The notes: generated from the letters alone by a model not told the origin. A DNA stretch of 39,694 bases from an uncultured archaeon (GCA_903873955.1 CAIQQL010000142.1:1-39694), one strand, 5' to 3'; shown: positions 2,590 through 22,494, counted from the first letter of the stretch. Made by a program: numbers and translations.

Positions 2590-4368
2590 ATGAAAAAAAT
2601 AGGTTTAGGAATTCTTTTCATCCTCACCCTTGCGATTTTTGCAGTCGGAGTTCATGCAGAAGATGCAGTAGTTATCAATTCTAAAAATTGGCAGGATGTC
2701 TACAATGGGCTTGTCTATGCGAATATGCTAAAAAAGTCTGCAAGTTTTATCACTACATATGATCAGGGTATCGATCTGATCAATCTTCTTGATAAATCCA
2801 AGACAAACATCCTGCTCATCGAATCTTCAGACAACAAGGTAATCTATGACTATGGATCCAATCTGCGAAGTAAAGGTTTCACAGTGGAAACCTTGCAAGG
2901 CACAACAACCCAGATAAACCTGCAATTGGCAAAACGTTCGGGTGCGACAAGGTTTTTTGTCCTGGATGACGCGTTTGGCTACAATGCCATTGCAATTGGT
3001 GGATACTGTGTTGCTTCACAAAGCATGCCTATTTTTGCCAATAATAAGAATTATGGGGAAGTGAAATCGTTCTTGCAAACGGTTTCTAATCCAAGGGTGA
3101 CTTCATATGGGCGGGTTGATCGGGAAGTGAAGGCGACGATTGCTCCTTATTTGACAGAAACAATCAACAAAGGGAATAAGTTCTTGAATAACATTGAAGT
3201 TTTCAAAAAGCATCTTTCTCTATCCGGAAGGAACCAGATTGTCATGACTGATGGGGGTGTTATTGAGGCAGAGATCCTCTCAGGCATGGATCCTGTCATG
3301 CTCGTAGGCGAGACCGAAGTTCCTGCCGATGTCATTCAGATGATCAAAGACGCAAATATCAAGGTTGGAGTGGCAATCGGGACAAATATTTTCGGTAATG
3401 CCAAAACAATAAAGGACGCTACAGGCATAAAGACCTTGGTTAAGTTTGGCCAGGGTCGAAATCAGGTCGAGTATCCTCTGGATACCGTCGTGCTTCCTTC
3501 TTTTGAATATCTTTTAGATATCACCCATGTGGAATATAATCTCATCACGCAAAAGCTGACCCTTACTTTCTCTAATCCAAGTACAAGGAATTTCCTTATC
3601 TTCAAAGGAGATTATAACATCCTCTCTCAAGACAAATCTATTGCAACTACCGGCGATAATGACTCAGTCTATGTCTCCCAGGATGGCACTATCACCACGA
3701 CCTATGACAATATCAATCTTGTAGACTATGCCAATAAAGACCTGACCTTGCAGGCACAGGTGCTCATGGGTGAAGACACAGGGGCCCTTGAATATGTCCT
3801 TAAAAAAGATGTGCCAATCACTTTCTCAAAATTTGACGATAGCTCTGACATCCAGATTGTCTCAGCAAAATATAACCAGTATGCAAAACGCTTTGAGATC
3901 CAGATTAAAAATACGGGTTCAGTAGAAGTATATACCCGTGCACAGATAAATGATTTCCTCATTGCTGGAGAAAAAAACACGCTTTCTTCAACGGGCGATC
4001 CAGTCAAGCTCGCTCCTGGAGAAACCAAAGATATCAAGATTGTATCGCCTCAGGGATTGGAACAGTCCGACTTTGACGATAATCCTCTTATCCATGGCAA
4101 ATCCTATTATGGTCAACGTGCCGATGTCCTCATCAAATCTAAACTCTTTGACCTGAAGTATGATGTAGTCTCGGGCAGAGGGCTTTCAACAGGTATCCTT
4201 GGTGCCTTCTTGGGCGTCTTCGGGACTATGCAGTGGTATTATTGGGTGATTGTGTTCATCATCGTGATAGTCCTTATCTGGCTTATCCTCCTTTTATTAA
4301 GAAGACGTAAGAACGAGGGCTCGGGTTCTTCACGAGTTACTGGAAAAGTATCCTCAAATATATCCTAA
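2590..4368 (+). CDS. Surface protein with CWB2-like (cell-wall-binding repeat 2-like) N-terminal region, CARDB-like C-terminal segment and C-terminal TM
   Basis: Signal peptide; repeated 'DAVVINSKNWQDVYNGLVYANML...', 'ATRFFVLDDAFGYNAIAIGGYCVASQSMPIFANN...' and 'NQIVMTDGGVIEAEILSGMDPVMLVG...' pattern resembling CWB2 repeats; TM WYYWVIVFIIVIVLIWLILLLL plus RRRK. TTTATAAA at 2561-2568, 26 nt before ATG. Confidence 0.55.
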   Translation: MKKIGLGILFILTLAIFAVGVHAEDAVVINSKNWQDVYNGLVYANMLKKSASFITTYDQGIDLINLLDKSKTNILLIESSDNKVIYDYGSNLRSKGFTVETLQGTTTQINLQLAKRSGATRFFVLDDAFGYNAIAIGGYCVASQSMPIFANNKNYGEVKSFLQTVSNPRVTSYGRVDREVKATIAPYLTETINKGNKFLNNIEVFKKHLSLSGRNQIVMTDGGVIEAEILSGMDPVMLVGETEVPADVIQMIKDANIKVGVAIGTNIFGNAKTIKDATGIKTLVKFGQGRNQVEYPLDTVVLPSFEYLLDITHVEYNLITQKLTLTFSNPSTRNFLIFKGDYNILSQDKSIATTGDNDSVYVSQDGTITTTYDNINLVDYANKDLTLQAQVLMGEDTGALEYVLKKDVPITFSKFDDSSDIQIVSAKYNQYAKRFEIQIKNTGSVEVYTRAQINDFLIAGEKNTLSSTGDPVKLAPGETKDIKIVSPQGLEQSDFDDNPLIHGKSYYGQRADVLIKSKLFDLKYDVVSGRGLSTGILGAFLGVFGTMQWYYWVIVFIIVIVLIWLILLLLRRRKNEGSGSSRVTGKVSSNIS

Positions 4369-7257: not shown

Positions 7258-10200
7258 CTAGATCTCATAATAAATGTTCAGGAGATGGCTTGATCCTTTG
7301 TAGTTCTCCAGGGCGATAGGGACCTTGATCTCATAGTCATAGCTTCCAAATGCCCCCTGCTGTGAGCTATTGATGGCAGCGACAAAGACAAGGTCTTCAT
7401 TTACTGCAGTACTGAACTCTCCAGTCCCGAGGTCCTGGGTAGTGTCCCATAACATTCCCGTCTTGAAGGCCGTGCTGTTGGTGCTTTTGATTGTAGGGAC
7501 ATACTGGAGGGGAGTCCCGTAGATATTATAGGTTGCGCTGGTTCGCGGAGTGCTGCCATCAATACTATAACTGTCATTCACATTGCCGGGGTAAATGGAA
7601 AGATTCAAGACCTGGTCAACTTCATTGAAGTCATTCGAAGCATTGCCATTGGATTTGGTCCTGCCAATCGCTTGTAGGCTGGCCCAACTTATGGATCGGT
7701 CCTTATTAACAAAGTAGATGTTCTTGACAGGGTCAGTACCGAAGTTGAAGAGGATGCTGCTATTGCCTAACAGTTTCATGGCAGTCGAATTGCCATAGAA
7801 GACCTGGTAGAGAAGGCTTGAATCAAAGGCGACCTGGATACTGCGGTTACCGCCGCTCCAATTATAATTTCCTGAGAGGTCATAGGCCAGGCAGTTCCAG
7901 GTATAATTGCCTGTATACAGCTGTACTGTCCAGTTGACCGTGACACTGGAAGTGCCGTTGACGTCCGTGGTCTGGACAAGGGAAAATGACTGGTTCTGGG
8001 AGTTGGTCAGATACAGGCTCAGATTACGTAAGCCAATGCTGTCTGTGGCGTTACAGCTGAACTGTTGTAATAGCGGATAGCTGGTGGTATTGGTGAGACT
8101 AGCATTTGGGATCAGGGCATTTACGATTGGTGGAGTGGTGTCGATAATCAAGGTGTCATTCCAGCCGCTCACTGCCCTGTTTCCCGCAAAATCAAATGCC
8201 TGATAGAACCATTTATAGACTCCTTCGACAAGCTGGACCACGATACCTAAGATAGTGTTTAATACCTTGGGGACAAACGTCACGGTGGTCATGTTGATGA
8301 GGGCTCCCGTCGCATTATCATAGATAAAGATGGTCGCATTTCGAATTCCGCTTCGGTCATCACTGAGATTGACCGTGAAATTGTTCGTAAGCGTATTGCT
8401 ATACTCTGTCTTAGGGCCGCTGCCTCCGCCACCACCACCTCCGCCACCTCCACTGACGGCTGAGATGATAGTCACATTTGGAGCGATGTAATCAAGGGTC
8501 ACATTACGGGTCTCGGTCCAGGCGCAGTTATTTGAGACATCGCAGGAACTGGCATTGAAGTAGTATACTCCCTGGGCAGGCGGATTGAAGCTTAAGAAAA
8601 GGTAATTGGTGCTGACATTGGTGAAATTGAGAAGGCTGCCTGAGGCGTTATAGACGTATAAGGTGACATTCCTGACTCCTGATTGCCCGTCCAATGCACT
8701 GACATTGATGAGGATGCTCGAGTTCGTGGATGAGCTGGAGTTGTCAGTAGGGTTGGCAAAGACGATGGTTGGAGCAAGAGTGTCACTCGCAGAACCATTG
8801 ATCAGCACACTGTCCATGGTCGTTAGGGTGTCAGACCCTGATTTTGCACAGTTCACCGTCCAGTTGAAGGTGCCATTTGAAATAAAGCTTCTAGTGTATT
8901 GATACAGATTGACGGTGGTGTTTTCAATCATGACATTTCCTTTAGAGTCTGAGAAATTAATGATACAAATGGAGCCACTGATGAAATTGTTGTTGCTGAT
9001 GCGTGTATAATTTGCAAAGAACGTCACTGGTTGGCCTGGGAACTTGGTTTGTCCTCCCCTGAAAACTCCCGAGTCAGTCTCATCCCAGATGGTCAGTCTA
9101 GATTTCGACCCTGTAGTGTATGAAGTAAAGTGAGTTACAGTAAACGATGCGATTCCAGTGAGATTACTATAGCTCACATTTGTACAAATGGACGTATTGC
9201 AGATAACTCCATTCATATAGACATCAGGCGTTTCGGTCCAGGGAAGATTCTTGATAAATATGGTTGCTGTGGAATTGAAACTCATGTCAACACCAAAGGT
9301 CACCGTGACATTGTTATAAGTCAGGTTGGTGTATGCGTCAAAACTTTGGTAGGTGACATTGACGCATCCGGGCCAGATGACCTTGTCATAGTCAGTTTCA
9401 AGGATAGCGGTACCATTACACACTCTTGTCAGGTCAGGCAGGCTTGACCAGTTGGTGGTGTTGCCATTAAACAGGGTTGGATCAGTAAGGGGAAGAGATT
9501 CAATAATATACCTGATGACGCGGGTTTCCGAATCATTGAAGTTCCCGCCTACATCATACGTTCGTACTCTCCAGGTGTAGGTGCCATTACCCAGGGTGTA
9601 ATTGAACGATGCATTGACTGAAGGGCTGAGCAGTGATACACCCTGAACCACGGCGCCATTGATATACAGCTCTATTCTGGTGATGTTCTTATTATCACTT
9701 GCAGAATAAGATAATGTCACAAAACCATCTCCATCAATGGAATTATTTGCCGGACTGATGAGGGTCAGGGAAGGAGGGATGATATCTATGGCCAAGGTGA
9801 TGTTTCTTTTTTCAGTGTTATTGCAATTGCCAGAGGTATCACAGGAACTTGCATTGAAAAAATAAGTCCCATTGACCAGGCCAGTCCTGTTGAGGTAGTA
9901 ATAACCTCCGTTCGCTGATGAAACGTTGATGAGTGCTCCACTGGCATTATAGACATAGATCGTGATATTGCTCACAACACCATTGTCTACTGCCATGGTA
10001 TTAATAGGAATATAAGGGGTGTATACTATTGACCCAGAATCAGGTGTGGGGGAGAGAAAAGTGATTACTGGAGGTTTTACATCGACAATGATTGTGCCAT
10101 TTGCGTTGAGATTGAAATAAGGGGTATAGGTAAGCGACCCGCTGTCAATCGCTCTGCATCTGAAGTCAACCCCTGTCTGAGGTTGTTCATTGAAGATGTT

Positions 10201-13200
10201 CCAGAGAAGGGTAGAATTGGCCCAATGAATACCAATCTCTTGCCATTGCTTTGCAGTATATGATGTGTTCACTGCTTTAACCTGGACATCATCAATCCAG
10301 CATCCTCCATAATCCGAGGTAGAATCTACCGGAGAGAGCTTGCAACCAATATCAAACGAATAATTTCCCCCATAGGTGGGAACCATGCGATAGGTTGCAT
10401 TGCCTTGAAGATACTGGTCGACATATTGGTTTCCCCATGCGCCAAGGAGTGCAGGACCCGCAATGACGGTACCATCGGTTATGTTCTTGAGCATCAGGGT
10501 GACATTCTCATAAGGTTCAGTGGAATCTGAGATCCTGAGGCGATAATGGAAGGAGACCTCTACGGAGGTAGGTGAGTCTGTGACATTCAAGGAGACATTC
10601 CACCCTCCTGAAATAGACGTGTTGGTGAGCGGTGTGTTTACGTTGAGCTCGGTGCCAAGACAATATCCGCTAACGCAGCTTTCATTGATAGTTCTTCTGC
10701 CAATTGCCTGGGGGGTAGCCGAGGTACCATAGAGATTAGGGTAGAACGTGAAACTCTGGTTGCCTGTCTCAAAGCTGGCATTGATGAGGGTAGAATTCCC
10801 TCTCTGCGGTGCAAAGAAAGCTTCAACGTGATAGGTGAGGGTGTTATTGTCCGCGTCTGTACTGCCGCTGCAGTTTAGAGAGAGAGTCGTATTGAAATAA
10901 CCGCTGCAGCTTCCCCCATTACAGGTTATGTTTGTTGGAATGGTTGGAGGGCTATTGATGATATAGAACCAAGAGGAGGAAGTGGTGTTACGGTTTCCGG
11001 TGGTATCATTGGCAAAGATGGTAATATTGAAACCCCCTAAGATTGAGGTATTCAAGCCAGTGAATTCATAGAATCTGGTTATGGCATTGTACGTGAGGGG
11101 GATGGTTTGTATGGACCCATTAGGATAGGTCAGATTCATAATGACTTTGTTGACCAGAGCATTGTCTGTGACGTTGATCTGGATGGTATAAGGCAGGCTT
11201 TGATTGATTAATGTCCCTGAAGTAGGCGCGATTATTTGTACAAGTGGTGCAAGGGTATCGATGATGGTCGTGCTTGCATTGAGGTAATAGGTTCCGATGA
11301 GTCTGCTCAGGGAGTCAAAATAGCTGATATTGGCAAAATTGGTGATGGATGTGCTATTGGAGAGGGACTCATTGATACGGACCGTGATTTTAAACGCGTT
11401 TGTTTGCCCGGAGTAGATGACAGGGTAGACCCATCTTACGGTATTTCCTTGGATGCTTCCTCCTTCACTGAGATTGATGATATCCACTCCTGCAGGCAAC
11501 GTGTCGGCAATAGTGACATTGATCGCGTCGCTTGGCGCATAATCTCTTTGTCCAAAAGCGACCGCCATATTGCCATTGGCAGGGTCTGCAATCATGGCTG
11601 TGATATAGTATACCCCATCCTTTCCTCCCTGCACAATACTGGGATAGCCATCTGAGCGATTGTTGGTGGTAAGACGTTTTATGTCCCAGGTTATGCCATT
11701 ATTGTAGGAGACTGCCATGAAGAGCTCTCTGCTGGTCGCATTGATTTGCGAGTCATATGCCCAGTTATTATCTGAGACATTGGTGGTTGAAGACCAGCCA
11801 ATATAGAGATTGCCTGCCGCATCATGGGTGATAGAAGATTCATAGGTTCTGAATACATTATTGGTGATTCCTTTGCGGTTGTTATCTAATGCATTAAACA
11901 CCAAAGGATTAGTGGTGTTGGCAAAGAAGATGTTTTGTAAGGTGTTGTTGACAGGATCAAAAGGGGACCAGGCAAAATAGAACATGCCTTCTTTGAAGTC
12001 TGCTGAGATATCCACATCTCCATAGCTATTATTGGTAAGTTGTACTCTCGAAGAAAAACCTCCAAGGGGACTGGTGGAGTTTTGGATATAAAGCTCCCCA
12101 TCTCCTGCCTCATAAGCGATATAATACATCCCTGAGTCATCTTGGAGCATAAGAGGTTGGCGCTCAGTAAATCCGGGAGTATAGGTGAGTGCATAAGGTT
12201 CGCTCCACGTAAGCCCATCATCAAATGACTGGATAAGCCAGACATCTCCGTCAGCCCAGATACTCCCATTTGAATCCATATGGGTATACACAATAAAGAG
12301 TGAACCATTTTTATCTTCAAACGCATAAGGGAAGGCATCGTGCCCGACTTCATTGGTGGCCTGTATCGGGCTTGACCAGTTGACCCCTGCATTGGTTGAA
12401 CGCACTACATAGAGGTCCTGATTTCCATTATCCACTGTTTTGAGGGTGTTTTGGTTGTAAGGGATTATCAGGGTTCCTGCTTTTGTCTTGATGATACGAG
12501 GGGCATCCTTGAAATAAGCATTGCTGACAATCGTGTGGAGATCATTGAATGCGAGAGGGACAATTCCTGGAAGGATAATCGCAGAGGTGTTGATGGTGTA
12601 GTTCAGGAATGTTCCTATCTGGACGGGGTCTGGAAAGTCTTCCTTGCTTGCGGTAAGGTTTGGTTGTACCACTTGGAACGTGGTTGTTTGGGTGTTGTTA
12701 AGGTTGCCTGCGTAGTCTTTTGCAAGTATTGTTACATTATACATCCCCAATAAGGAGGTCTTGCTGAAATATCCCTCATATCTGAGGAGGATAGGATTGT
12801 AACTGAGGTTAAAGATCTGCATTGAGCTGTCAGGAAGGGTCACATTTCCCTGTACGCTTGCAATAGGGGAGCTGTCATTGACCACGGCATAGATGAATGC
12901 GCTGCTATTGATCCCATAAAGGGTCATCTCGACAGAGACCAAAGGTACCAATGGTGGCGTCGTGTCTTGAAAGGCGAGGATTACGGTTCTGTTAGCACTT
13001 CCCCATCCAACGTTCCGGGCATAATCGAAACATTGGACGTTCCAAAGAAAACTGGTATATCCTATATTTCTTACGGTGAAGTTAGTGGTGTTCTGGAAAC
13101 CAGTCAGGTTCACAGTTTGGTTTTTGAGCCAGGTTCCCGAAGCATTGAGCCAAAGCGAGCAATTCGCAAGATTTCCATTATCGCTGATGTTTGCGACAAA

Positions 13201-16200
13201 GGTGATGTTGACGCCAAGGCTGCTGTTGTAATAATTGTCTGCAGGGCTGATCAGTGCGACGAGGGGTGGTACTGCAACGGTGGTATTTCTCGTTTCAGTG
13301 ATGTTACAGTGGTTGACAATATCACAAGCAGTCGCATTGAAGAAATACAGCCCATCCGCTAGGTTAGTGAGATTTACGTAAAGAGGAGAACTCGAACTGT
13401 TGGTCGTATTGACGAGCGCCCGGCTTGCATTATAGAGAAAGATGCTGATATTGGCAAGATTGGTGTCATTGGCGCTTATATTTGCCAGAATATAACTCCT
13501 GTTTATCGTGCTTCCGGAAAGATCGGTAGGGGTGGTGAAGTTGATGCTCGGAGTAAGTGTGTCGATGGTCACATTACGTGTCTCCGTATTATTGGTGAAC
13601 CTGCTCGTGTCATTGGCGCTCGCATTGAAGAAATACAATCCATCAGCAAGCCCTGTGAAGTTGAACAAGAAGGGAGAAGAACCAGAACTGGTGGTATTGA
13701 TCAGGGATTGACTCGAGTTATATAAATAAATCGTGATCCTGGCAAGGTTGCTATCGGTTGCCGTTACATTAATACGTAGGATGTTCCTGTTGAGGAAGGT
13801 ACTTGAGTTTTCCGTAGGGGGGGCAAATTGTACCTGTGGAGGGTAACAATCGGTCACGTTGATGAAATCATTGAGGGTGATAGTGGTTAACCCAGCACGC
13901 GTGCAACGTATATTATACGTTCGTACTCCTGTGACATTGAATGTGCGATTGAACTCATAATATGCAGATGTGGCGTTATACGCCATTGCGTTACCAGTGG
14001 AATCTGTGAAATTGACAACACACGTGGCTCCAGTAATAGTAGTACCATTCGAGTTACGGGTATAGTTTGCATAAAATCTCTCGGGATTTCCGGAACAGGC
14101 CATTCTTCCTCCCCCCGTGATGCTTGAGTCATTCTGATCCCAGATAGTAAGTCGTGCGCTTCCTGTAGCACTATAATTCGTGAAGTGCGTTACGCTAAAT
14201 GTCAAGCTTCCTGAATTGATATCATATATTGGATTGAGGCAGTCTGCTGAATCACAAATCTGGTCATTCATAAGGATATCAGGCGTTGCATCCCATCCGG
14301 TGAGGTTATAGAGTGCGATGTTGGCGCTGGAATTAAAGGTTGGATTTAGGCTTACCTCAACTGATGTGAGGTTAGTACTTATCTTAATGAAAGAGGTTAA
14401 GTTTTGATACGCGACATCAACACAGTCATTCCATTGAATCATGCCTCCTGTAACATTTTCAACCACAGCAAGTCCATCACAGACATTATGGAGGTCCGAG
14501 ACATTGCTCCAGTTAGTAGTCCTGCCTCCAAACTTGGAAGAGTCAGGTATGGCGCTGCTGTTGATGGTAAGGGTATAATTTACGGAGTAGTTGCTGTTGC
14601 TCATTAAGTCTTGGGCCCTGCAGGACCAGAGATATCTGCCATTACTTAATAGGACTCCAAAAGTTGAGGTGTTCGTTATACCCGAAACTGCTCTTGTTTG
14701 ATTCAGGTTATTATTGATGAACAGCGAGATGTTGGATAATCCCAGATTATCGGTTGCGTTGCAATTAAAACTGACATTGGCAGGGGTCCTTAAGGTGTTG
14801 TTGTCTGGGAAGAGGGGGTCTGCTGTTGGAGGAAGGGTGTCTTTTCTGGTAAATGTACGGAATTCGCTTGAGTTAGAAAGGACACCATTAAAACAAGTCA
14901 CACTCCAATTATGCGTCCCATATGTGATAGAATCAATTGAAAAATTGGTGGTCGTTCCATTGAGGGTTGTACTATTTGTAAAATTGAGGACGTTATCGAG
15001 ATAGATTGAACAACTAAATGAGGCATTGATCGTATCAGAAGCAACAAAACTGAAATTGACCTGGTCAGAATCATTGATCGTTGTTGTGTTGAGAGGGGCG
15101 AGAAGATTGATGGTGGGAGGAGTGTATGAGGTGAATGTGATATTTCTCACTTCTGTGCAGTTGGTGGATCCATACCGTTCAAGAGCACAGGCATAATAGG
15201 TCTTCGTTGTTTGTGATGAATCATCATAACTCTGGTTGATCTCTAGTTGCCAGCTGGAATTGGAAGCCGTCTGGTAAAGGGTCGAGACATACCTTAGGGC
15301 AATATCTCTCTGCGGTAAAGACCGATTATAGATAATGAGGTCATCAAGATACCCTGTATAGTTCCTGCCTGCAACTTTTCCTGAAGCGCCAACATAAAGG
15401 AGGGACGATCCTCCCCTGATTCTTCCTCCGGCACTGACTGCCCCTGCAAGGGCACCATTACTATAGATCCCAAGACCCGTATCATTATAGGTACAGAAAA
15501 TTTGAGACCAGCTGCCTCGAGGTATAGAGGTGTTGATGCTGTAAAAAGCAGTCGTAGTGTTTATGGTACATCCAATAACTGAACTGTTCAGCATCCACAT
15601 TCTGTAGCCTGCGCCAGCTACTAGGCTGTTTTCAAGAATAGTATCAAGAGGTTGATTGGCGTTTGGGTTGAGCCAAAGTCCGAATGAGAGGTTTCCACTT
15701 ATATTTAGATTAGATGATCCTCTCACATACATGATATCGTTTGCTCCATCAAAAGAAAGTGCACTACCATATCTTCCATTGGTTAAGGGTGCTGTACCGT
15801 TATATAACGTACCGCTATTGTTTGTCGCAAGATCATCAACAAAGGTGGTGTTCTCTTTTAATGCAGAGACATTGTTGAATGGCATAAGAAGCATAACCGA
15901 AGGGTCAAAAACAGAGTAATTGGTCCCGTTCCAGTTCCAGATCAGCTGGGTGAGACCAGTCTCATTTATGCTTATATTTGCAATAAAACTCTTGTTGTTG
16001 GATGAGGCTTCATCAAATGGGGTAGGATCAGTGAATTGAATGAGGGAAGGAATAACAAAGTAAATATTCAGTTCAGGCACTGCACTGGTATTTGTGTTTT
16101 CCTTTGAGGCAAAAGTGTGGGTGTAGATTGTTGTCGTTCCGGATTCCACAGCATCCTGGATTTCCCATCCATAATTTGGATACGTCCCATTGAGGAAATT

Positions 16201-18621
16201 AAGGATATCTTTGGTGACATCAAAGGTGACCCATCCTATGGCCGCCTGGGCATTGATCACATCCGTATAAGAAGCATTGGCGGGCTGCGTGGTCCAGGTA
16301 AGCCCTGTTTCAGTCCAACTGCTGTTTGATACCCTGTTAATCAGCAAGGTTCGATTAGCTGTAGATGCAACAGTCTGAAACAAGGAAAGATTTGCATAAA
16401 TGACTTGTGCATTTGCAGGTATGCCCGTGGTATTGAAAAAAAGATAAGCGTGACCTGCCTGATTTGTTCTTGCACGTACAATAAGTGTTGTTCCGGTTCC
16501 ATAATTGGTTCCTGCATTATTTTGAAGCACATACGTATCATTCATACTGGGTTGCAGCTGTTCAAGAAAACCAGGGTCTTCAGGAGTCAAAGTGAATGCA
16601 TACCTCTCTCCAGGAGAGAGTTCCATGACAAAGTCCCAGTCTCCTTCACAGATACCTGCGCTAAAATTCCAGGTTCTGCATTTGTACAGTGCATTGCCTT
16701 TTGCTACTGCTTCAACAAGGGCTGAGCTGAAATTGAGATTTGTTGGATCGATGGCATAGGTCTGTGTTGTCGCATAATCATCTAGAGTTATATTCGGTAA
16801 ATCTATGCCTAACACGACTTGTGTTGTATTCTTTTGCGTGAGATTATAAAAGGTGATATGGGTGAGATGAGAGTCTTTCTCAGAGAAGTCAACAGAAAGT
16901 GTCGCCTTTGTAGTGGAAAAAAGTGCATAGGTTTTTTGTGGGGAGGCAGGAGTAGTGCTCATGACGCCGCGCATGGTCCTGGTCACTTGTGCTGAAGGCT
17001 GGTCATCAATCTCAGGGATACTGCGGTTATTGTCATCAACCAAAGTCAGGTTTGCATCAACATAATTTCCATTCTTATCCTGTAAGACTAAAGTAAAGTT
17101 GATAAGTGCTCCAACCTCGATAGTTATATTGTTGCTTAGAAGGTTGATCCCATTTTGAATGGCGGTGAAGGATACCTGATCAACTCCCGTAAACTCAGGG
17201 GCTGCCGAGAAAGTAGCAATGGTCCCTTCTAGATCGATATGGATATGCTCTGAACCATGGGCTATAAACAAAGGTGAAGAGGTGTTATCGGTGAGATAAT
17301 CACTGAGATTAAGCGTATAATTTTCTCCAGAAGCAAAAGAAAAGTCGGGTATTTGGAAGGAGGTCAAATTACCTTCCTCATTTGAAAGATTGGAGGGTTC
17401 AGCGATACCCTTTGTGTTATTGCTTGCGTTTTGATTTCCAGGGATGAATATTGTGCTATAAGCTTCTTTTAGGGTGAGGTTATCAGAGACTAGGAGTATG
17501 CTTGCTTCATAAGCCTGACCTGGCTGTAGACTAAATTCCTCAGGGTTGAATGGCAATATCAATCGTCGTTCATTGCCCAGATAATCCTGACCGAATCCAA
17601 AAGTCGATACGTTATAGGTTGTGCTGACAATGAAGGAATTTCCTGTCACTTGCAGAGAAAGATCGCTTTCATTGAGCAATTGTGCGTCCGTATGCACAGA
17701 GTTGGGGACCAGGCTGATATTTTGTCCGTCAATGGGATAACTTGCCCGTGTGGTGATGTCTACAAACCCTGAAAGGGTCTTGATTGTAAATTGTGACGCT
17801 TCCTGGGCTGAGGCGAGGACAAACATGCTGCTCTGCAAAATTGATAGGGCTGCTTTAATGATCTTGTCCTTGAACAGAGGATACGCCAGGCTCGAAATCA
17901 TAGTGAATCTTGGCTGAGCAAGCACAAAGGAATAGAAAGGAAGGGCAAGGCCCTCCGTGATCGGAGGGACACTTGGCGATTCCTTTTGGGGTTGCTCTGC
18001 CTGCAGAGTCTCTGAGGCGGAGAATGTGAGGTCATTTGAAGGTTGATCTGTGCTTGTAGGATTTGAAGGTGGTGATGTGATAGGAGAGGTTTCAGTCGGG
18101 GTGCTTGTGTCGAGGGTATTTTGATTTGATGGGGTGCTTGACGTACTGGTATCAGAGGTATTATCCACAGGAATATAGACTCCTTTTCCTCCATCGGCAG
18201 GAGTGGAATTATCTGCAGATGGCCTGCTAAAGGTAAGGTTAAAATACACTTTGGGGTAGAGATCATCTTTTCCTAAAAACCCGAAACCCTCTCCAGACCC
18301 GGTAAGATTTTTCCCTAGAATGAAATAGCTTGCATTCATGAATGAGATATTCTCGTTATATTCCCGTAGTTCGGTCAATGGGATGGTCTTGGTGAGGTTA
18401 TTTACCGTGAGTAGGACCATAGCCTGAGAGGGGATGAACTCACCTTCGTGCAAGGAAAAGGCAAGGTAAATGGGCTCTGGGCCGCTTGTTGCAATACTTA
18501 CCTTGGGGAGAAGGAGGAATAAGCAGATAAAACTAAAAAATACGATTAACCCTAAGCGCAGTTTGGCTTCATCCCCTTTTAGACATTTAGGAAAATATAC
18601 TCCTTCTTTCAAATAATTCAT
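7258..18621 (-). CDS. Giant (3787 aa) secreted multidomain surface protein: DNRLRE, LamG, repeated Ig-like, DUF11 and BNR/propeller-like modules; C-terminal domain shared with the locus paralogs
   Basis: Single 11.4-kb ORF with an N-terminal hydrophobic signal; S/T/P-rich linker; DNRLRE-like 'DTYVLQNNAGTNYGTGTTLIVRARTN...'; LamG-like 'ALSFDGANDIMYV...GSWSQIFCTYN...YLDDLIIYNRSL'; many 'GLYFFNAS..' Ig-like repeats; very many N-X-S/T sequons. Confidence 0.9.
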   Translation of the reverse strand: MNYLKEGVYFPKCLKGDEAKLRLGLIVFFSFICLFLLLPKVSIATSGPEPIYLAFSLHEGEFIPSQAMVLLTVNNLTKTIPLTELREYNENISFMNASYFILGKNLTGSGEGFGFLGKDDLYPKVYFNLTFSRPSADNSTPADGGKGVYIPVDNTSDTSTSSTPSNQNTLDTSTPTETSPITSPPSNPTSTDQPSNDLTFSASETLQAEQPQKESPSVPPITEGLALPFYSFVLAQPRFTMISSLAYPLFKDKIIKAALSILQSSMFVLASAQEASQFTIKTLSGFVDITTRASYPIDGQNISLVPNSVHTDAQLLNESDLSLQVTGNSFIVSTTYNVSTFGFGQDYLGNERRLILPFNPEEFSLQPGQAYEASILLVSDNLTLKEAYSTIFIPGNQNASNNTKGIAEPSNLSNEEGNLTSFQIPDFSFASGENYTLNLSDYLTDNTSSPLFIAHGSEHIHIDLEGTIATFSAAPEFTGVDQVSFTAIQNGINLLSNNITIEVGALINFTLVLQDKNGNYVDANLTLVDDNNRSIPEIDDQPSAQVTRTMRGVMSTTPASPQKTYALFSTTKATLSVDFSEKDSHLTHITFYNLTQKNTTQVVLGIDLPNITLDDYATTQTYAIDPTNLNFSSALVEAVAKGNALYKCRTWNFSAGICEGDWDFVMELSPGERYAFTLTPEDPGFLEQLQPSMNDTYVLQNNAGTNYGTGTTLIVRARTNQAGHAYLFFNTTGIPANAQVIYANLSLFQTVASTANRTLLINRVSNSSWTETGLTWTTQPANASYTDVINAQAAIGWVTFDVTKDILNFLNGTYPNYGWEIQDAVESGTTTIYTHTFASKENTNTSAVPELNIYFVIPSLIQFTDPTPFDEASSNNKSFIANISINETGLTQLIWNWNGTNYSVFDPSVMLLMPFNNVSALKENTTFVDDLATNNSGTLYNGTAPLTNGRYGSALSFDGANDIMYVRGSSNLNISGNLSFGLWLNPNANQPLDTILENSLVAGAGYRMWMLNSSVIGCTINTTTAFYSINTSIPRGSWSQIFCTYNDTGLGIYSNGALAGAVSAGGRIRGGSSLLYVGASGKVAGRNYTGYLDDLIIYNRSLPQRDIALRYVSTLYQTASNSSWQLEINQSYDDSSQTTKTYYACALERYGSTNCTEVRNITFTSYTPPTINLLAPLNTTTINDSDQVNFSFVASDTINASFSCSIYLDNVLNFTNSTTLNGTTTNFSIDSITYGTHNWSVTCFNGVLSNSSEFRTFTRKDTLPPTADPLFPDNNTLRTPANVSFNCNATDNLGLSNISLFINNNLNQTRAVSGITNTSTFGVLLSNGRYLWSCRAQDLMSNSNYSVNYTLTINSSAIPDSSKFGGRTTNWSNVSDLHNVCDGLAVVENVTGGMIQWNDCVDVAYQNLTSFIKISTNLTSVEVSLNPTFNSSANIALYNLTGWDATPDILMNDQICDSADCLNPIYDINSGSLTFSVTHFTNYSATGSARLTIWDQNDSSITGGGRMACSGNPERFYANYTRNSNGTTITGATCVVNFTDSTGNAMAYNATSAYYEFNRTFNVTGVRTYNIRCTRAGLTTITLNDFINVTDCYPPQVQFAPPTENSSTFLNRNILRINVTATDSNLARITIYLYNSSQSLINTTSSGSSPFLFNFTGLADGLYFFNASANDTSRFTNNTETRNVTIDTLTPSINFTTPTDLSGSTINRSYILANISANDTNLANISIFLYNASRALVNTTNSSSSPLYVNLTNLADGLYFFNATACDIVNHCNITETRNTTVAVPPLVALISPADNYYNSSLGVNITFVANISDNGNLANCSLWLNASGTWLKNQTVNLTGFQNTTNFTVRNIGYTSFLWNVQCFDYARNVGWGSANRTVILAFQDTTPPLVPLVSVEMTLYGINSSAFIYAVVNDSSPIASVQGNVTLPDSSMQIFNLSYNPILLRYEGYFSKTSLLGMYNVTILAKDYAGNLNNTQTTTFQVVQPNLTASKEDFPDPVQIGTFLNYTINTSAIILPGIVPLAFNDLHTIVSNAYFKDAPRIIKTKAGTLIIPYNQNTLKTVDNGNQDLYVVRSTNAGVNWSSPIQATNEVGHDAFPYAFEDKNGSLFIVYTHMDSNGSIWADGDVWLIQSFDDGLTWSEPYALTYTPGFTERQPLMLQDDSGMYYIAYEAGDGELYIQNSTSPLGGFSSRVQLTNNSYGDVDISADFKEGMFYFAWSPFDPVNNTLQNIFFANTTNPLVFNALDNNRKGITNNVFRTYESSITHDAAGNLYIGWSSTTNVSDNNWAYDSQINATSRELFMAVSYNNGITWDIKRLTTNNRSDGYPSIVQGGKDGVYYITAMIADPANGNMAVAFGQRDYAPSDAINVTIADTLPAGVDIINLSEGGSIQGNTVRWVYPVIYSGQTNAFKITVRINESLSNSTSITNFANISYFDSLSRLIGTYYLNASTTIIDTLAPLVQIIAPTSGTLINQSLPYTIQINVTDNALVNKVIMNLTYPNGSIQTIPLTYNAITRFYEFTGLNTSILGGFNITIFANDTTGNRNTTSSSWFYIINSPPTIPTNITCNGGSCSGYFNTTLSLNCSGSTDADNNTLTYHVEAFFAPQRGNSTLINASFETGNQSFTFYPNLYGTSATPQAIGRRTINESCVSGYCLGTELNVNTPLTNTSISGGWNVSLNVTDSPTSVEVSFHYRLRISDSTEPYENVTLMLKNITDGTVIAGPALLGAWGNQYVDQYLQGNATYRMVPTYGGNYSFDIGCKLSPVDSTSDYGGCWIDDVQVKAVNTSYTAKQWQEIGIHWANSTLLWNIFNEQPQTGVDFRCRAIDSGSLTYTPYFNLNANGTIIVDVKPPVITFLSPTPDSGSIVYTPYIPINTMAVDNGVVSNITIYVYNASGALINVSSANGGYYYLNRTGLVNGTYFFNASSCDTSGNCNNTEKRNITLAIDIIPPSLTLISPANNSIDGDGFVTLSYSASDNKNITRIELYINGAVVQGVSLLSPSVNASFNYTLGNGTYTWRVRTYDVGGNFNDSETRVIRYIIESLPLTDPTLFNGNTTNWSSLPDLTRVCNGTAILETDYDKVIWPGCVNVTYQSFDAYTNLTYNNVTVTFGVDMSFNSTATIFIKNLPWTETPDVYMNGVICNTSICTNVSYSNLTGIASFTVTHFTSYTTGSKSRLTIWDETDSGVFRGGQTKFPGQPVTFFANYTRISNNNFISGSICIINFSDSKGNVMIENTTVNLYQYTRSFISNGTFNWTVNCAKSGSDTLTTMDSVLINGSASDTLAPTIVFANPTDNSSSSTNSSILINVSALDGQSGVRNVTLYVYNASGSLLNFTNVSTNYLFLSFNPPAQGVYYFNASSCDVSNNCAWTETRNVTLDYIAPNVTIISAVSGGGGGGGGGGSGPKTEYSNTLTNNFTVNLSDDRSGIRNATIFIYDNATGALINMTTVTFVPKVLNTILGIVVQLVEGVYKWFYQAFDFAGNRAVSGWNDTLIIDTTPPIVNALIPNASLTNTTSYPLLQQFSCNATDSIGLRNLSLYLTNSQNQSFSLVQTTDVNGTSSVTVNWTVQLYTGNYTWNCLAYDLSGNYNWSGGNRSIQVAFDSSLLYQVFYGNSTAMKLLGNSSILFNFGTDPVKNIYFVNKDRSISWASLQAIGRTKSNGNASNDFNEVDQVLNLSIYPGNVNDSYSIDGSTPRTSATYNIYGTPLQYVPTIKSTNSTAFKTGMLWDTTQDLGTGEFSTAVNEDLVFVAAINSSQQGAFGSYDYEIKVPIALENYKGSSHLLNIYYEI
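8418..8453 (-). repeat. Poly-glycine tract (SGGGGGGGGGGSG) in the giant protein
   Basis: Direct reading of the (GGT/GGC/GGA)n reverse complement of cctccgccaccaccacctccgccacctcc. Confidence 0.9.
8795..9500 (-). repeat. Duplicated ~210-aa module, copy B, in the giant protein
   Basis: 'DPTLFNGNTTNWSSLPDLTRVCNGTAILET...VTHFTSYTTGSKSRLTIWDETDSG...FFANYTRISN' parallels copy A. Confidence 0.8.
13855..14550 (-). repeat. Duplicated ~210-aa module, copy A, in the giant protein
   Basis: 'DSSKFGGRTTNWSNVSDLHNVCDGLAVVEN...VTHFTNYSATGSARLTIWDQNDSS...FYANYTRNSN' parallels copy B. Confidence 0.8.
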
Positions 18622-18734
18622 AGTGCTTTAAGCAAAAGCAACCCCTTGCCAGATTAGGGATATATTTGTTTTTATACCTTTGTGTATGTAGTGTAAAGAG
18701 GCCCAGATAAACAGAATTGAGGTAGTGTAAACGC

Positions 18735-20084
18735 TTAATGCCTAAGCTTCCTATCCCATTGATTGTGGTTGTTGTGATGGTGTCTTTGGCTGGCTGTCGC
18801 ATTTAAGGTACGCTTCTTTTTGGCAGGCAGGCCATAGATTGGCTTTTCCACAATGATGATTTCATCACGGGTATCTTTCTTCTCTTTATCGCAGCAACAG
18901 CAGCAAAGGATCAGGAGAAGGATCATGAGCAGGATAGGCAAGAGGATACAGATCAAGGAGGAGACATTGAGCACTTCCCTATTCACGGTCGTTGGGGCGG
19001 GAGTTTGGATCTCACTGATATAATAGGGTGAGGCCCTTATGCCCAAGTCCACCTTGTCTCCATGGATGCGATCGAACCAGAAGATGATGTCCTCTAACCC
19101 ATCTCCATTGAGATCGATGCCTTTGCGTTCTCCAATCCTCAAGGTAAGGGGCATACCTATAGGGAGGATGGAAAGCAGGATGGTCTCGTTCCCCATGCCT
19201 TCAACTCGGGCATAGTAAGTCCCATTCTTGAATTCGAACATGAACCTGTCCATTTCACGCATGGCATGGGTGTACCCATCAATGAGCTGTTGATCAGAGA
19301 CGGGATAGGTTATCCTGACATTTTCACATATTCCATTTTGCTGACAATCTAAAGGAATCGTTTGATTCACAGGGAAAGTTTCATTGGATGATCCTCCCGG
19401 ACTTGGGCCGGTCGGATACGTGGGATTGGTTGGGGGCTGAGTGCAAGGATTTTTTGGATCAAGATAGAAGAAATAGGTGAGGTTATGGGTTGGAGGAGAG
19501 GGGAGCACCATCTGATAATCAACGGTAGTATTGGTAAAGGATATCCCTCGAATGATAGGTGTGACATAGATTGGAGTGGCCCCTTGTTGGAGCAATCCTA
19601 CAAAGTAGGTGCCTGATAGAGCGTGCATTTTAGCGGCAGATAGGAGCAGGGTATTGCCATTCACCAGAAAAGTCGCATTGTCATAAAAGACATATTTGGC
19701 AGAAACAGGGCTCCCGTCTGATATCCCTATGAATGTGTTAACTGTGGTGTAATTCCCGGCAGTGACCAGGTTCCAATTGATGACGGATAGAGTGGAGGCA
19801 TATAACGGGCTCTGGTAGCATTGGTCTAACTTCAGGTCCTTCCCTTCAACCGTAGCTTCTGCACCATTGAAGGTAAGATTATCATATAATCCGTTAGCTC
19901 CCACTAAGCCATAATATCCGTGCCAGATAGAAGGTGTTAAGTGGAGACTGAGGGTATATGCCTGTCCACCATGACCAGTCGATACTACATGCCCGCTTAG
20001 TTGGGGGAAAAGCATTAGGAAAATGAGGATAACGCTTAGAAACGAAAGAAGGATGAGGACAGCTACCACAATCTTTTTTTGCAT
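18735..20084 (-). CDS. Membrane-anchored surface protein: N-terminal locus-shared domain, EF-hand-like loop, C-terminal TM, Cys cluster and His-rich tail
   Basis: N-terminal signal/TM; 'IWHGYYG...INWNLVTAG...GTYFVGLLQQGATPIYVTPII...VDYQMVLPSPPTHNLTYFFYLD'; DLNGDGLED; TM LICILLPILLMILLLIL followed by CCCCC; tail RHHHNNHNQWDRKLRH. Confidence 0.8.
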   Translation of the reverse strand: MQKKIVVAVLILLSFLSVILIFLMLFPQLSGHVVSTGHGGQAYTLSLHLTPSIWHGYYGLVGANGLYDNLTFNGAEATVEGKDLKLDQCYQSPLYASTLSVINWNLVTAGNYTTVNTFIGISDGSPVSAKYVFYDNATFLVNGNTLLLSAAKMHALSGTYFVGLLQQGATPIYVTPIIRGISFTNTTVDYQMVLPSPPTHNLTYFFYLDPKNPCTQPPTNPTYPTGPSPGGSSNETFPVNQTIPLDCQQNGICENVRITYPVSDQQLIDGYTHAMREMDRFMFEFKNGTYYARVEGMGNETILLSILPIGMPLTLRIGERKGIDLNGDGLEDIIFWFDRIHGDKVDLGIRASPYYISEIQTPAPTTVNREVLNVSSLICILLPILLMILLLILCCCCCDKEKKDTRDEIIIVEKPIYGLPAKKKRTLNATASQRHHHNNHNQWDRKLRH

Positions 20085-20104
20085 GGGTTTGGTAAGAATT
20101 AAGA

Positions 20105-20113
20105 TTATATAAA
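20105..20113 (-). promoter_or_regulatory. TATA box (TTTATATAA) for the 449-aa gene, about 25 nt from ATG (leaderless)
   Basis: Plus-strand TTATATAAA at 20105-20113; start codon at 20084. Confidence 0.6.
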
Positions 20114-20163
20114 CTTAATTTAGGGATCTGTCTTTTGTTCTTACAGTATTTTTCAGAGAAATA

Positions 20164-20217
20164 TTTATAAAGAATAGCCGTGTTATTGGAATATCTTATC
20201 AAAAGAATGAAAGGAGG
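20164..20217 (+). promoter_or_regulatory. TATA box (TTTATAAA, 20164-20171) and Shine-Dalgarno GGAGG (20213-20217) for tandem paralog 1
   Basis: Direct reading; same spacing architecture in paralogs 2 and 3. Confidence 0.7.
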
Positions 20218-20220
20218 TTA

Positions 20221-20907
20221 ATGATGATATCTAAAACATATACAGCTATTTTCGGGTTATTGGGGGTTCTGATCGTTTCGTTAGCAGTCTTTGGCAGTTT
20301 TGCCTTGGCTTCAACTCCTACTCCAGCCGGCGCAGTTAATATCTCTGTGATCGACTATGGAAGTGCGACTGAAACTACAGCCACAACCGTGAATGCTTCA
20401 TATGGTAATATTAGCAGACTAGACCTTACGGCCAATGCTTCCACTAAGAGGTGGCATGGATATTTTGGTAACATAACTGCCTCCCTTAAATTGGGGAATG
20501 GTTCCGCGGTCTTTTATGACTTTGGAGGCGCCCAGATAAACACGGTTTTTGCCACATCGACAAATTCCTTTGCCTGGGGTCAGTTAGTTGCTGCAACAGC
20601 CTCTAATGTTGATACTGCCTGGGGTTATACGACCAATGCAGCTGATAATGCTTCTAAAGTGTTCAGTGGATCAGGTACAGTAGAAAACATCGCTTCAGTC
20701 CCAACTGTTACTACAGTCGGGTCTTTTGTGACCGGCGCTTTTGCAGATAGTACTCCAACAACGAGAGGTGACTTTGCCTTCGGCGCAGTCGTCTACAATC
20801 CAGCAAAAACTGGTTTTGATAGTAGTGCAACGTACAGTTATCAATTGATGGTTCCAACCGGAGTCCAAAACAGTCAGCAATATTATCTCTACATGAGCCT
20901 CAAGTAA
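20221..20907 (+). CDS. Secreted protein, tandem paralog 1 of the locus-shared domain family (start may be ATG at 20224)
   Basis: Signal peptide; KRWHGYFGNITASLKLGNGSAVFYDFG...TVFAT...FGAVVYNPAKTG...YSYQLMVPT...YYLYMSLK. Confidence 0.85.
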   Translation: MMISKTYTAIFGLLGVLIVSLAVFGSFALASTPTPAGAVNISVIDYGSATETTATTVNASYGNISRLDLTANASTKRWHGYFGNITASLKLGNGSAVFYDFGGAQINTVFATSTNSFAWGQLVAATASNVDTAWGYTTNAADNASKVFSGSGTVENIASVPTVTTVGSFVTGAFADSTPTTRGDFAFGAVVYNPAKTGFDSSATYSYQLMVPTGVQNSQQYYLYMSLK

Positions 20908-20950
20908 AAATTTTTATTTTTATTTTTATTTTTTCCTTTCTTTTATCTTT
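20908..20950 (+). terminator. T-rich archaeal-type terminator after paralog 1
   Basis: aaatttttatttttatttttattttttcctttcttttatc immediately after the stop. Confidence 0.6.
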
Positions 20951-20953
20951 CCC

Positions 20954-21023
20954 CGTCATAGTAATGTTTATAAATCTGGGACCCTCCGTATAACCAGTAT
21001 CATACTAAAAAGGTGAAAGGAGG
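20954..21023 (+). promoter_or_regulatory. Promoter/leader of paralog 2: CGTCATAG (20954-20961), TTTATAAA (20967-20974), GGAGG (21019-21023)
   Basis: Direct reading; conserved with the paralog 3 leader. Confidence 0.7.
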
Positions 21024-21030
21024 TTCAAAC

Positions 21031-21708
21031 ATGAAAAAACAATTTCTATTATATGCTATAGCCCTATCAGTTTTGGCTATTGCGTTCGCACTCTGTGCTT
21101 CATTCACACTTGCTATCCCAACACCATCTGGTGCTAATGGGACTGCAACGTATATGGGAAGATATACACAGACAGACTCTGGAACCGCTGTTGCTGAAGG
21201 AGGAAATGTCAGCCTTCTCAATCTCAGTGCTAGCCTTACGACGCATAGATGGCAGGGTTTCTTAGGTTCAGTCTCAAGCAATCTTGCTTTAGGAAACGGA
21301 TCAAGTGTCCTTTACAACTTTGGAAAGGCTCGACTTGACACAGTTTTTGCCACGACTAACAGTGGAGCGTATAGTTGGTTAACCTTACAAGCTGGTGCAG
21401 ATACCGATGTCAATGACCTCTGGGCTTTTGATGGTACGGGTGGTGCAGACAATGCAACAACCGCTTTCAATGCAACTTCCACAGTAAAGGGTATTTCTGT
21501 TCCTGCAGCTAAGACTACGGGTGGATTTATTACCGGTCTCTTCAATGATGGAACTAACGCTGGCAAGGATAATATTGCCTTCGGCGCAGTCGTCTACAAT
21601 CCAGCAAAGCCAGGATTAGATGGAGTCAACTATGAGTATCAACTTATGGTTCCAACCAACACTGCCTCAACTGAAACCTATTACTTCTACGTAAGTCTCG
21701 CAGAGTAA
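21031..21708 (+). CDS. Secreted protein, tandem paralog 2
   Basis: The track start at GTG 21013 includes the SD; ATG at 21031 gives MKKQFLLYAIALSVLAIAF signal. THRWQGFLGSVSSNLALGNGSSVLYNFG...FGAVVYNPAKPG...YEYQLMVPT...YYFYVSLAE. Confidence 0.87.
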   Translation: MKKQFLLYAIALSVLAIAFALCASFTLAIPTPSGANGTATYMGRYTQTDSGTAVAEGGNVSLLNLSASLTTHRWQGFLGSVSSNLALGNGSSVLYNFGKARLDTVFATTNSGAYSWLTLQAGADTDVNDLWAFDGTGGADNATTAFNATSTVKGISVPAAKTTGGFITGLFNDGTNAGKDNIAFGAVVYNPAKPGLDGVNYEYQLMVPTNTASTETYYFYVSLAE

Positions 21709-21714
21709 TCCGAC

Positions 21715-21755
21715 TTTATTTTTTATTTTTTATTCTTTTTCTTCCTTTTTTCCCA
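21715..21755 (+). terminator. T-rich terminator after paralog 2
   Basis: tttattttttattttttattctttttcttcctttttt. Confidence 0.6.
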
Positions 21756-21756
21756 T

Positions 21757-21826
21757 CGTCATAGAAACGTTTATAAATCTCAGCCTCTAAATAGAGACAG
21801 TATTATATAAAAAAGGTGAAAGGAGG
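21757..21826 (+). promoter_or_regulatory. Promoter/leader of paralog 3: CGTCATAG (21757-21764), TTTATAAA (21770-21777), GGAGG (21822-21826)
   Basis: Direct reading; conserved with the paralog 2 leader. Confidence 0.7.
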
Positions 21827-21834
21827 TTAATAAC

Positions 21835-22494
21835 ATGAAAAACTATTTTCTAGTAATCATTGCAAGTATCGTAGCTGTAATGGCTATGGCTGCTTTCACA
21901 CTCGCTATCCCTGATCCTTCAGGTGCAGTTGGAACAGCTGAATGGGTCGGTAACTTTACTCAATCTACTGCAAGCAGTACTACTGCTCATGGTGGGCAGG
22001 TTAGCCAGTTCTATTTAGCTGCTAATTCAACCACTCATAGATGGCAAGGTTATCTTGGTAATGTCACAGGCGTTCTCGCCTTAGGTAATGGTTCTGATAT
22101 CCTCCTCAATTTTGGAGCTCCAGAATTTGACACTGTTTTTGCAACAACAAATTCAGGTGCAGTCCCATGGACTACATTACAAGCTGGTGCAGCTGCTGAT
22201 GTTGATACCCAATGGGGTTTCTCCACTGGTAAAGACACTGCTGTTACTGCATTCAACACTACTGCTACTCTAGCCGGGATTTCTGTCCCTGTTGCTACTG
22301 CTACTGGAGACTTCCTTACGGGAGTTTTCAATGACGGTTCAAGTGCAGCAAAGGACAATCATGTCTTCGGTGCTGAAGTATACAGTACTGCAAAGGCAGG
22401 CTTAGGTGGTAATGAATACCAATACGAACTTGTAGTTCCTACTCCTACTGATGGAGATGAGACTTACTACTTCTACGTACGCCTCGCTGAGTAA
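21835..22494 (+). CDS. Secreted protein, tandem paralog 3
   Basis: Signal peptide; THRWQGYLGNVTGVLALGNGSDILLNFG...TVFATTNSG...WTTLQAGA...YQYELVVPT...YYFYVRLAE. Confidence 0.87.
   Translation: MKNYFLVIIASIVAVMAMAAFTLAIPDPSGAVGTAEWVGNFTQSTASSTTAHGGQVSQFYLAANSTTHRWQGYLGNVTGVLALGNGSDILLNFGAPEFDTVFATTNSGAVPWTTLQAGAAADVDTQWGFSTGKDTAVTAFNTTATLAGISVPVATATGDFLTGVFNDGSSAAKDNHVFGAEVYSTAKAGLGGNEYQYELVVPTPTDGDETYYFYVRLAE

What the first reader, a model, noticed from the sequence alone, without database searches (positions are those of the whole stretch)
7258..22494. One uncharacterised extracellular domain shared by five proteins of a divergent surface locus
By eye, the three tandem secreted proteins share a core: (R/K)W(H/Q)G(Y/F)xGN(I/V)T..L.LGNGS.V.Y.FG....TVFAT....W..L.A........TG.F.DG....D..FGAVVYNPAK.G...Y.YQLMVPT.....YY.Y..L. 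The same order appears in the 449-aa membrane protein (IWHGYYG...INWNLVTAG...GTYFVGLLQQGATPIYVTPII...VDYQMVLPSP...LTYFFYLD) and at the extreme C-terminus of the 3787-aa protein (QVFYGNSTAMKLLGNSSILFNFG...NIYFV...ISWASLQA...TGEFSTAVNEDLVFVAAINSSQQG...YDYEIKVPI...). Three soluble paralogs, one membrane-anchored receptor-like copy and one copy capping a giant fibre-like protein suggest a multi-component surface assembly built on one domain, such as domain-domain polymerisation or a layer plus its anchor. I do not recognise a named family.
Basis: partly seen in the sequence, partly recalled or inferred. Interest (0 to 1): 0.85.

Follow-up and report, generated by a model that had tools for sequence, protein, structure and literature searches.

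The report
DPANN surface module shared by paralogs
A tiny uncultured archaeon carries five surface proteins built on one previously unnamed protein domain, and related archaea keep the same set of parts together, often tied to a membrane motor, which points to an undescribed cell-surface machine or fibre.

Summary
One domain of about 190 residues, absent from Pfam, NCBIfam and solved structures, occurs in all five proteins. Three are small secreted, sequon-rich paralogs (S). One is the ectodomain of a two-TM membrane protein (M). One is the extreme C-terminus of a 3787-aa glycan-binding-type giant (G). Profile-profile matches are S-M 5e-20, S-G 1e-15 and M-G 9e-7; reversed controls are 0.16 or worse. 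AlphaFold2 models of S and of the G C-terminus have the same order of secondary-structure elements and no significant PDB neighbour.

The domain is widespread in Nanobdellota (Pacearchaeota and Woesearchaeota; 84 of 382 genomes). S, M and G co-occur almost perfectly across 191 genomes (p<1e-20) and are syntenic. Tandem S genes in relatives are always one A-type plus one B-type (23 of 23 pairs). In relatives M carries a cytoplasmic HerA/CedD-type motor; the window's copy keeps only the anchor. The layout resembles nanohaloarchaeal SPEARE proteins, but split into separate polypeptides sharing a domain.

Most likely S subunits form a glycosylated extracellular polymer that G decorates and M anchors. 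Homology, co-occurrence and topology are tested; polymerisation and the motor's substrate are inferred.

The parts
20221..20907 (+). S1 (P0001): secreted S-domain protein, 228 aa, N-terminal signal segment then the domain to the last residue
   Evidence: S profile without window members 7e-20; ribosome-binding site AAAGGAGGT at 20210-20218
21031..21708 (+). S2 (P0002): secreted S-domain protein; ATG start at 21031 more likely than GTG at 21013
   Evidence: S profile 1e-19; AlphaFold2 pLDDT 88.6, pTM 0.78
21835..22494 (+). S3 (P0003): secreted S-domain protein, 219 aa
   Evidence: S profile 1e-16
18735..20084 (-). M-type membrane protein P0004, 449 aa: TM1 (aa 5-23), S-like ectodomain, second extracellular region, TM2 (aa 377-395), short basic/His-rich cytosolic tail; no ATPase
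   Evidence: M profile 1.9e-22; BLAST to motor-bearing relative 1.2e-12
19305..20084 (-). M ectodomain region of P0004 (S-related domain with its N-terminal anchor)
   Evidence: profile A5 match 19305-20093
7258..18621 (-). giant surface protein G, 3787 aa: N-terminal signal/TM, CBM96/DNRLRE, LamG, Big_7 repeats, BNR-like, C-terminal S-related domain; 236 N-x-S/T sequons against 84 expected
7261..7812 (-). S-related domain at the extreme C-terminus of the giant
   Evidence: 1.3e-48; 8.2e-63, window row included; AlphaFold2 pLDDT 86.4, pTM 0.85
16084..16545 (-). CBM96/DNRLRE carbohydrate-binding-type domain of the giant (aa 693-846)
   Evidence: Pfam 4.1e-25, NCBIfam 6e-22
15298..15732 (-). LamG/concanavalin-like lectin domain of the giant (aa 964-1108)
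   Evidence: Pfam 1.5e-15
20085..20220 (.). divergent intergenic region with an archaeal TATA-like element on each strand (20162-20171 plus; 20105-20115 minus)
   Evidence: by eye; not tested statistically
2590..4368 (+). 592-aa membrane-anchored protein of a family also found near S genes (14 of 77 sources counting the window); possible accessory, role unknown
   Evidence: no Pfam family above cut-off

Best explanation
The five proteins are parts of one cell-surface assembly built on a single novel beta-rich domain. Small secreted, probably N-glycosylated S proteins are the bulk subunits of an extracellular polymer (fibre or patch); in relatives it is made from an ancient A-type/B-type pair. 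The giant G is a glycan-binding-type adhesin docked onto that polymer by the same domain at its C-terminus. M is the membrane anchor: its ectodomain is another copy of the domain and nucleates or holds the array. In most relatives M also has a cytoplasmic HerA/CedD-type motor with a co-encoded coiled-coil partner, so the full system is probably a contact-dependent adhesion and translocation machine; the window's organism keeps the adhesion half without the motor. Shown: homology, shared secondary-structure order of S and G, co-occurrence, synteny, motif-intact motor in relatives. Supported by sequence features: topology, sequon enrichment. Inferred: subunit-subunit binding through the domain, polymerisation, what the motor moves.
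For: Homology of the five. S and G models have the same order of strands and helices at good confidence. In 191 genomes of the family S is in 21, G in 21 and M in 19, with 20, 18 and 19 shared by S-G, S-M and G-M; presence is patchy even within one genus. Synteny G-S-S-T and M-f8-coiled coil-S-HTH-S. The domain ends at or next to the last residue in S and in the G proteins of relatives. Tandem S genes: 23 of 23 adjacent pairs are one A plus one B, 21 in order A-B, a stoichiometric-pair signature. Cys pair in 119 of 122 S proteins, both lost together in the window trio. Sequons: S family 1031 against 449 expected, giant 236 against 84; cytosolic controls at expectation. The giant has lectin-type domains. 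M in relatives has DUF87/HerA and intact Walker A/B motifs; best NCBIfam hit CedD 2e-12.
Against: Foldseek finds no similarity to known donor-strand filaments or pilins. The same domain in three proteins could be independent recruitment of a recognition domain. One genome (G029) has G and M without typical S, one (G223) has S without strong G or M, and two more have S and G without M; assemblies are incomplete. The window's M has no motor, so any transport role does not apply to it directly.
Confidence: 0.5

Rival explanations
1. The domain is a stand-alone recognition (glycan- or protein-binding) domain recruited separately by secreted, membrane and giant proteins; the proteins act in parallel rather than as one assembly.
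For: Beta-rich fold with insignificant resemblance to lectin and glucanase jelly rolls; neighbouring lectin-type domains in the giant; paralog numbers vary from 1 to 7 or more.
Against: Near-perfect co-occurrence of all three architectures and conserved operon positions; obligate A-plus-B pairing of tandem S genes.
Confidence: 0.22
2. It is a type IV-secretion-like or DNA-exchange apparatus in which S forms the mating-type fibre, G the tip adhesin and M the translocating ATPase; surface adhesion is secondary.
For: M motor is HerA/CedD-like; CedD is required for DNA import in Saccharolobus (PMC11868833); SPEARE proteins were re-read as VirB4/TraG-like ATPase fusions (PMC10266531); coiled-coil partner and M are conserved neighbours.
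Against: The window genome retains S, G and the M anchor but the M protein has no motor and the coiled-coil gene was not found; CedA-like channel and other Ced parts were not examined; the HerA superfamily is broad and also includes repair and defence proteins.
Confidence: 0.2
3. S proteins are the S-layer (two-dimensional lattice) of these archaea, with M as the membrane anchor.
For: Secreted, sequon-rich, several copies, membrane-anchored relative.
Against: Present in only 84 of 382 phylum genomes and 25 of 191 family genomes, including many absences in nearly complete genomes; subunits are small and co-inherited with an adhesin and a motor.
Confidence: 0.1
4. S genes are a variable surface-antigen family expanded by duplication for immune or phage evasion, unrelated mechanistically to M and G.
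For: The window trio is a private expansion on a long branch; copy number varies.
Against: A/B subfamilies are old and conserved in order across Pacearchaeota and Woesearchaeota; tight co-occurrence with M and G.
Confidence: 0.05

Closest known systems
SPEARE-type giant proteins of nanohaloarchaea (PMC6642349, PMC10266531)
   Same: Giant adhesion-type ectodomain with LamG/Ig domains plus, on the cytosolic side of a TM, a HerA/VirB4-superfamily ATPase and coiled coil; DPANN archaea; proposed role in host contact.
   Different: Here adhesin (G) and motor-bearing anchor (M) are separate polypeptides that share one novel domain, accompanied by small secreted proteins made of that domain alone.
Archaeal donor-strand filaments: Saci_0406 thread (PMC9715654), AbpA bundling pili, and bacterial TasA
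   Same: Small Sec-secreted, glycosylated beta-rich subunits with an N-terminal arm, linked to a related cap or minor subunit in one operon.
   Different: No fold match in the PDB library by Foldseek for either model; no profile match to any chain; donor-strand exchange untested.
CedB/CedD and HerA ATPases (PMC11868833, PMC9905601)
   Same: M motor domain hits NCBIfam CedD 2e-12 and Pfam DUF87/HerA 5e-11; TM-anchored HerA-superfamily ATPase.
   Different: Far below the CedD and HerA curated cut-offs (46.6 bits against 600); large extracellular domain; window copy lacks the ATPase.
Archaeal type IV pilins/archaellins
   Same: Secreted surface subunits in tandem with membrane partners.
   Different: No class III prepilin cleavage motif visible in S1-S3; N-terminal hydrophobic helix looks like a signal peptide removed before the mature P-x-P-x-G start; beta-domain family unrelated by Pfam.

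Membership tests
SPEARE proteins | Single polypeptide of thousands of residues, mostly extracytoplasmic, C-terminal TM and conserved cytoplasmic VirB4/TraG-like ATPase region | tested here: not met
   Window G has no C-terminal motor and ends in the S-related domain; window M is 449 aa without ATPase; relatives' M have the ATPase but only about 800-1230 aa
SPEARE proteins | At least one laminin-G domain in the extracytoplasmic part | tested here: met
   LamG in window G (1.5e-15); none reported in the one M protein scanned with Pfam
SPEARE proteins | Sequence homology of the cytoplasmic region to SPEARE ATPases | not tested
   No SPEARE sequence was fetched; the paper reports similar sequences in Woesearchaeota (PMC6642349)
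Donor-strand filaments (TasA / AbpA / Saci_0406 thread) | Same fold of the subunit head | tested here: not met
   Foldseek against PDB to April 2026: 0 matches at E<=0.001; best 0.74 for S and 0.084 for G, neither a donor-strand filament
Donor-strand filaments (TasA / AbpA / Saci_0406 thread) | N-terminal extension inserted into a groove of the next subunit | tested here: inconclusive
   S has a confident arm (aa 35-79 of P0002) almost without strands in the monomer model; no multimer could be modelled
CedB/CedD DNA-import ATPases | Motor domain above curated equivalog score | tested here: not met
   46.6 bits against cut-off 600; no motor in the window copy
HerA/FtsK superfamily (relatives' M only) | DUF87-type P-loop domain with Walker A and B | tested here: met
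   Pfam 5e-11; GATGxGKS and LLVFDEVH or close variants in most M proteins whose frame reaches the motifs
Archaeal S-layer protein | Universal, dominant lattice-forming surface protein of the lineage | tested here: not met
   84 of 382 genomes in the phylum, 66 of 248 high-quality ones; lattice formation itself not testable
Type IV pilin | Class III signal peptide cleaved before a retained hydrophobic helix | tested here: not met
   By eye: helix starts within about 10 residues of the start with no [KR][GA] motif before it; cleavage not tested

The most novel reading that the evidence does not exclude
S, M and G define a new class of archaeal extracellular heteropolymer, made of A and B subunits of a fold not yet in the PDB, coupled through the same domain to a transmembrane HerA-type motor and to giant glycan-binding adhesins: a DPANN host-contact machine distinct from type IV pili, S-layers, donor-strand threads, Ced and SPEARE.
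Probability: 0.3. Interest if true: 0.9.

Novelty: new variant of a known kind. Interest (0 to 1): 0.74.

Why it matters
How tiny DPANN archaea attach to and exchange material with other cells is largely open. This gives a concrete, widespread, unannotated set of parts (secreted subunits, giant adhesin, motor-bearing anchor, coiled-coil partner, HTH regulators) that travel together in Nanobdellota, plus a natural experiment: the window's organism keeps the surface half and lacks the motor, so adhesion and translocation can be tested apart. A roughly 190-residue domain with confident models and no PDB match is also a ready target for structure work.

Tried and rejected
First genome-contig scan with the three window paralogs found nothing: they are too divergent; a profile from relatives found 229 stretches. 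Direct P0004-giant comparison is insignificant; kept only because both join through S. Viral origin: no match in 2.9 million viral contigs for S or G, none in predicted viral structures for S. Known PDB relatives by sequence: none. Defence-system reading: S and P0004 match nothing in PADLOC; the relative's motor matches only generic HerA plus Mads8, so not favoured. S-layer: rejected as sole role on distribution. An archaellum link (ArlC/D/E-like coiled coil next to M) was suspected by eye, but Pfam and NCBIfam gave only generic coiled-coil hits. Sigma-70-type promoter scan is uninformative for archaea and matched the shuffle expectation. Search of the own genome for the coiled-coil partner was negative, but the assembly is 89% complete and the search carried no positive control.

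Full report
WHAT IS THERE. The window is a contig of a 1.23-Mb, 154-contig, 89%-complete genome. Pfam and NCBIfam find nothing in the small proteins or the membrane protein. The giant has CBM96/DNRLRE, LamG, seven Big_7 stretches and a BNR-like region. None of 122 family members gives a meaningful Pfam family.

IS THE SHARED DOMAIN REAL? A three-paralog profile hits the giant's C-terminus at 1.4e-9 and P0004 at 3e-5 in a two-protein set. The decisive test used relatives only. Three groups were assembled from other genomes: S (119 sequences), M (12) and G (22). Window members score 7e-20 to 1e-16 (S), 1.9e-22 (M) and 1.3e-48 (G) at Z=100,000. Profile-profile matches are S-M 5e-20, S-G 1e-15 and M-G 9e-7; reversed controls are 0.16 or worse. 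S-M is collinear over the whole domain. AlphaFold2 gives S2 pLDDT 88.6/pTM 0.78 with 122 sequences and the giant's C-terminus pLDDT 86.4/pTM 0.85 with 21. Their elements correspond one to one: S E80-85, 91-95, 98-104, 107-114, H130-136, H148-151, E154-158, 161-169, 172-178, 188-193, 209-214, 224-230; G E20-25, 29-32, 38-41, 49-54, H79-86, H96-100, E110-115, 118-127, 135-141, 158-164, 178-183, 195-201. (G has three further short strands at 64-66, 169-171 and 174-176, and a preceding one at 5-11.) Neither model has a significant PDB match (best E 0.74 and 0.084) nor S a viral-structure match. That makes a fold absent from the PDB plausible; it does not prove one, since no cellular AlphaFold library was available. 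P0004 itself was not modelled.

WHERE IT OCCURS. A scan of 85,488 species genomes gave 229 stretches; all but two of the 76 kept loci's organism labels are Pacearchaeota, Woesearchaeota, Nanoarchaeota/Nanoarchaeia, DPANN or plain 'archaeon'. The two exceptions, one Patescibacteria and one Diapherotrites assembly, may be mislabelled (inference). In the phylum 84 of 382 sampled genomes have it; in the family 25 of 191.

THREE ARCHITECTURES, ONE SYSTEM. S: signal segment, arm, domain, end. M: N-terminal TM, domain, carboxypeptidase-regulatory-like and other beta domains, TM, HerA/DUF87 motor with intact Walker A/B, charged coiled tail. G: long adhesin-type proteins of about 2000-4850 aa, often accompanied in the same genome by a second version of about 500-900 aa, with the domain at the extreme C-terminus. 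Taking strong matches only, S is in 21, G in 21 and M in 19 of 191 genomes, with overlaps of 20, 18 and 19 (Fisher p 7e-25, 3e-21, 3e-24). Genomes are related, so p-values overstate, but presence is patchy within single genera while the set stays together. Gene order is conserved: G-S-S-T, and M-f8-coiled coil-(f13)-S-HTH-S. T is a 320-aa TM-anchored family found at 44 of 77 sources.

A AND B. A tree of 64 S proteins separates two subfamilies. All 23 adjacent tandem pairs are one A and one B, 21 of them A first. The window trio is a private expansion on a long branch (100/100). A Cys pair present in 119 of 122 S proteins is missing in exactly these three, as expected if the two form a disulfide that was lost once.

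SURFACE AND SUGAR. N-x-S/T sequons: giant 236 against 84 expected from composition, S family 1031 against 449, P0004 ectodomain 10 against 3.4; cytosolic neighbours at expectation. This fits exported, N-glycosylated proteins; glycosylation itself was not observed.

THE WINDOW'S PECULIARITY. P0004 is M without its motor: it aligns with motor-bearing relatives through the ectodomain (E 1.2e-12; alignment), then has a second extracellular region, TM2 at aa 377-395 and a short tail. The ORF is complete. Among strong M matches in 191 genomes no other complete frame is below about 780 aa (one 350-aa frame in G172 was taken to be cut by a contig end). The own genome shows a canonical HerA on another contig but no M-type motor, and the coiled-coil partner that neighbours M elsewhere was not found. 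With 89% completeness the latter is suggestive only.

HOW IT PROBABLY WORKS. S subunits are exported, glycosylated and assemble, in relatives as an A/B pair; G docks by its C-terminal copy and displays lectin-type domains; M holds the array at the membrane. The reason to prefer assembly over independent recruitment is the triple co-occurrence, the obligate A/B pairing and the terminal placement of the domain. The motor in relatives belongs to the HerA/CedD side of the FtsK-HerA superfamily (NCBIfam CedD 2e-12; PDB HerA chains). CedD is needed for DNA import in Saccharolobus (PMC11868833), and giant SPEARE proteins of nanohaloarchaea fuse adhesin and VirB4-like ATPase (PMC10266531; first described in PMC6642349). 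The present system reads as a 'split SPEARE' whose parts share a domain instead of a backbone. That analogy is inference; SPEARE sequences were not compared here.

VERDICT. Observation confirmed; interpretation partly supported and extended. Novel domain and novel combination, in a recognisable kind of biology (DPANN contact proteins with FtsK/HerA motors). Confidence is 0.97 that the domain is shared, about 0.85 that S, M and G are one functional system, about 0.5 that they form a polymer-plus-anchor as described.

Noticed in passing
G000:C84:3-24215 (L136 and L137 joined; T-like stretch at contig 22752-23273): The same genome has a second giant protein, at least 8071 aa and cut by the contig start. 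It has LamG/Ig-type domains, a T-family-like segment near its end, a short hydrophobic stretch, and then a C-terminal HTH domain (E 4e-42) of the same family that stands alone beside S genes at 18 relatives' loci: possibly a surface protein wired directly to a DNA-binding domain. Whether the short hydrophobic stretch spans the membrane, or the fusion is an assembly join, is open.
   Followed up: partly
G000:C71 (L133:478-1401 + and 1456-2400 +): Two tandem T-family-like proteins, on a contig away from the S/M/G locus; in relatives T usually follows the S pair directly.
   Followed up: partly
L049, L054, L058, L074 (between M and S): M is followed by a small helical protein (f8) and an approximately 280-aa cytosolic coiled-coil protein in the motor-bearing relatives; the coiled coil is very conserved (mostly 55-67% identity) although Pfam gives only generic hits.
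   Followed up: partly
L029:14295-16193 -, L033:1632-3527 +, L037:4874-7291 -: A second, short G protein (about 600-800 aa, CARDB and LamG types) lies near M in relatives, so each system may have a near-membrane and a far-reaching adhesin.
   Followed up: partly
window 2590-4368 +: 592-aa TM protein of a family recurring near S genes in 13 other loci, without sequon enrichment (2 against 5.5 expected), so perhaps not glycosylated like S, M and G.
   Followed up: no
G000:C96:6411-7052 (L041 ORF 1-2298): 765-aa surface-type protein with the pre-TM domain of M proteins (E 1.3e-7) but no motor and no S-related domain.
   Followed up: no
window 20085-20220: Divergent intergenic region with TATA-like boxes on both strands and strong AAAGGAGGT ribosome-binding sites before S1 and S2, hinting at high expression (by eye).
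   Followed up: no
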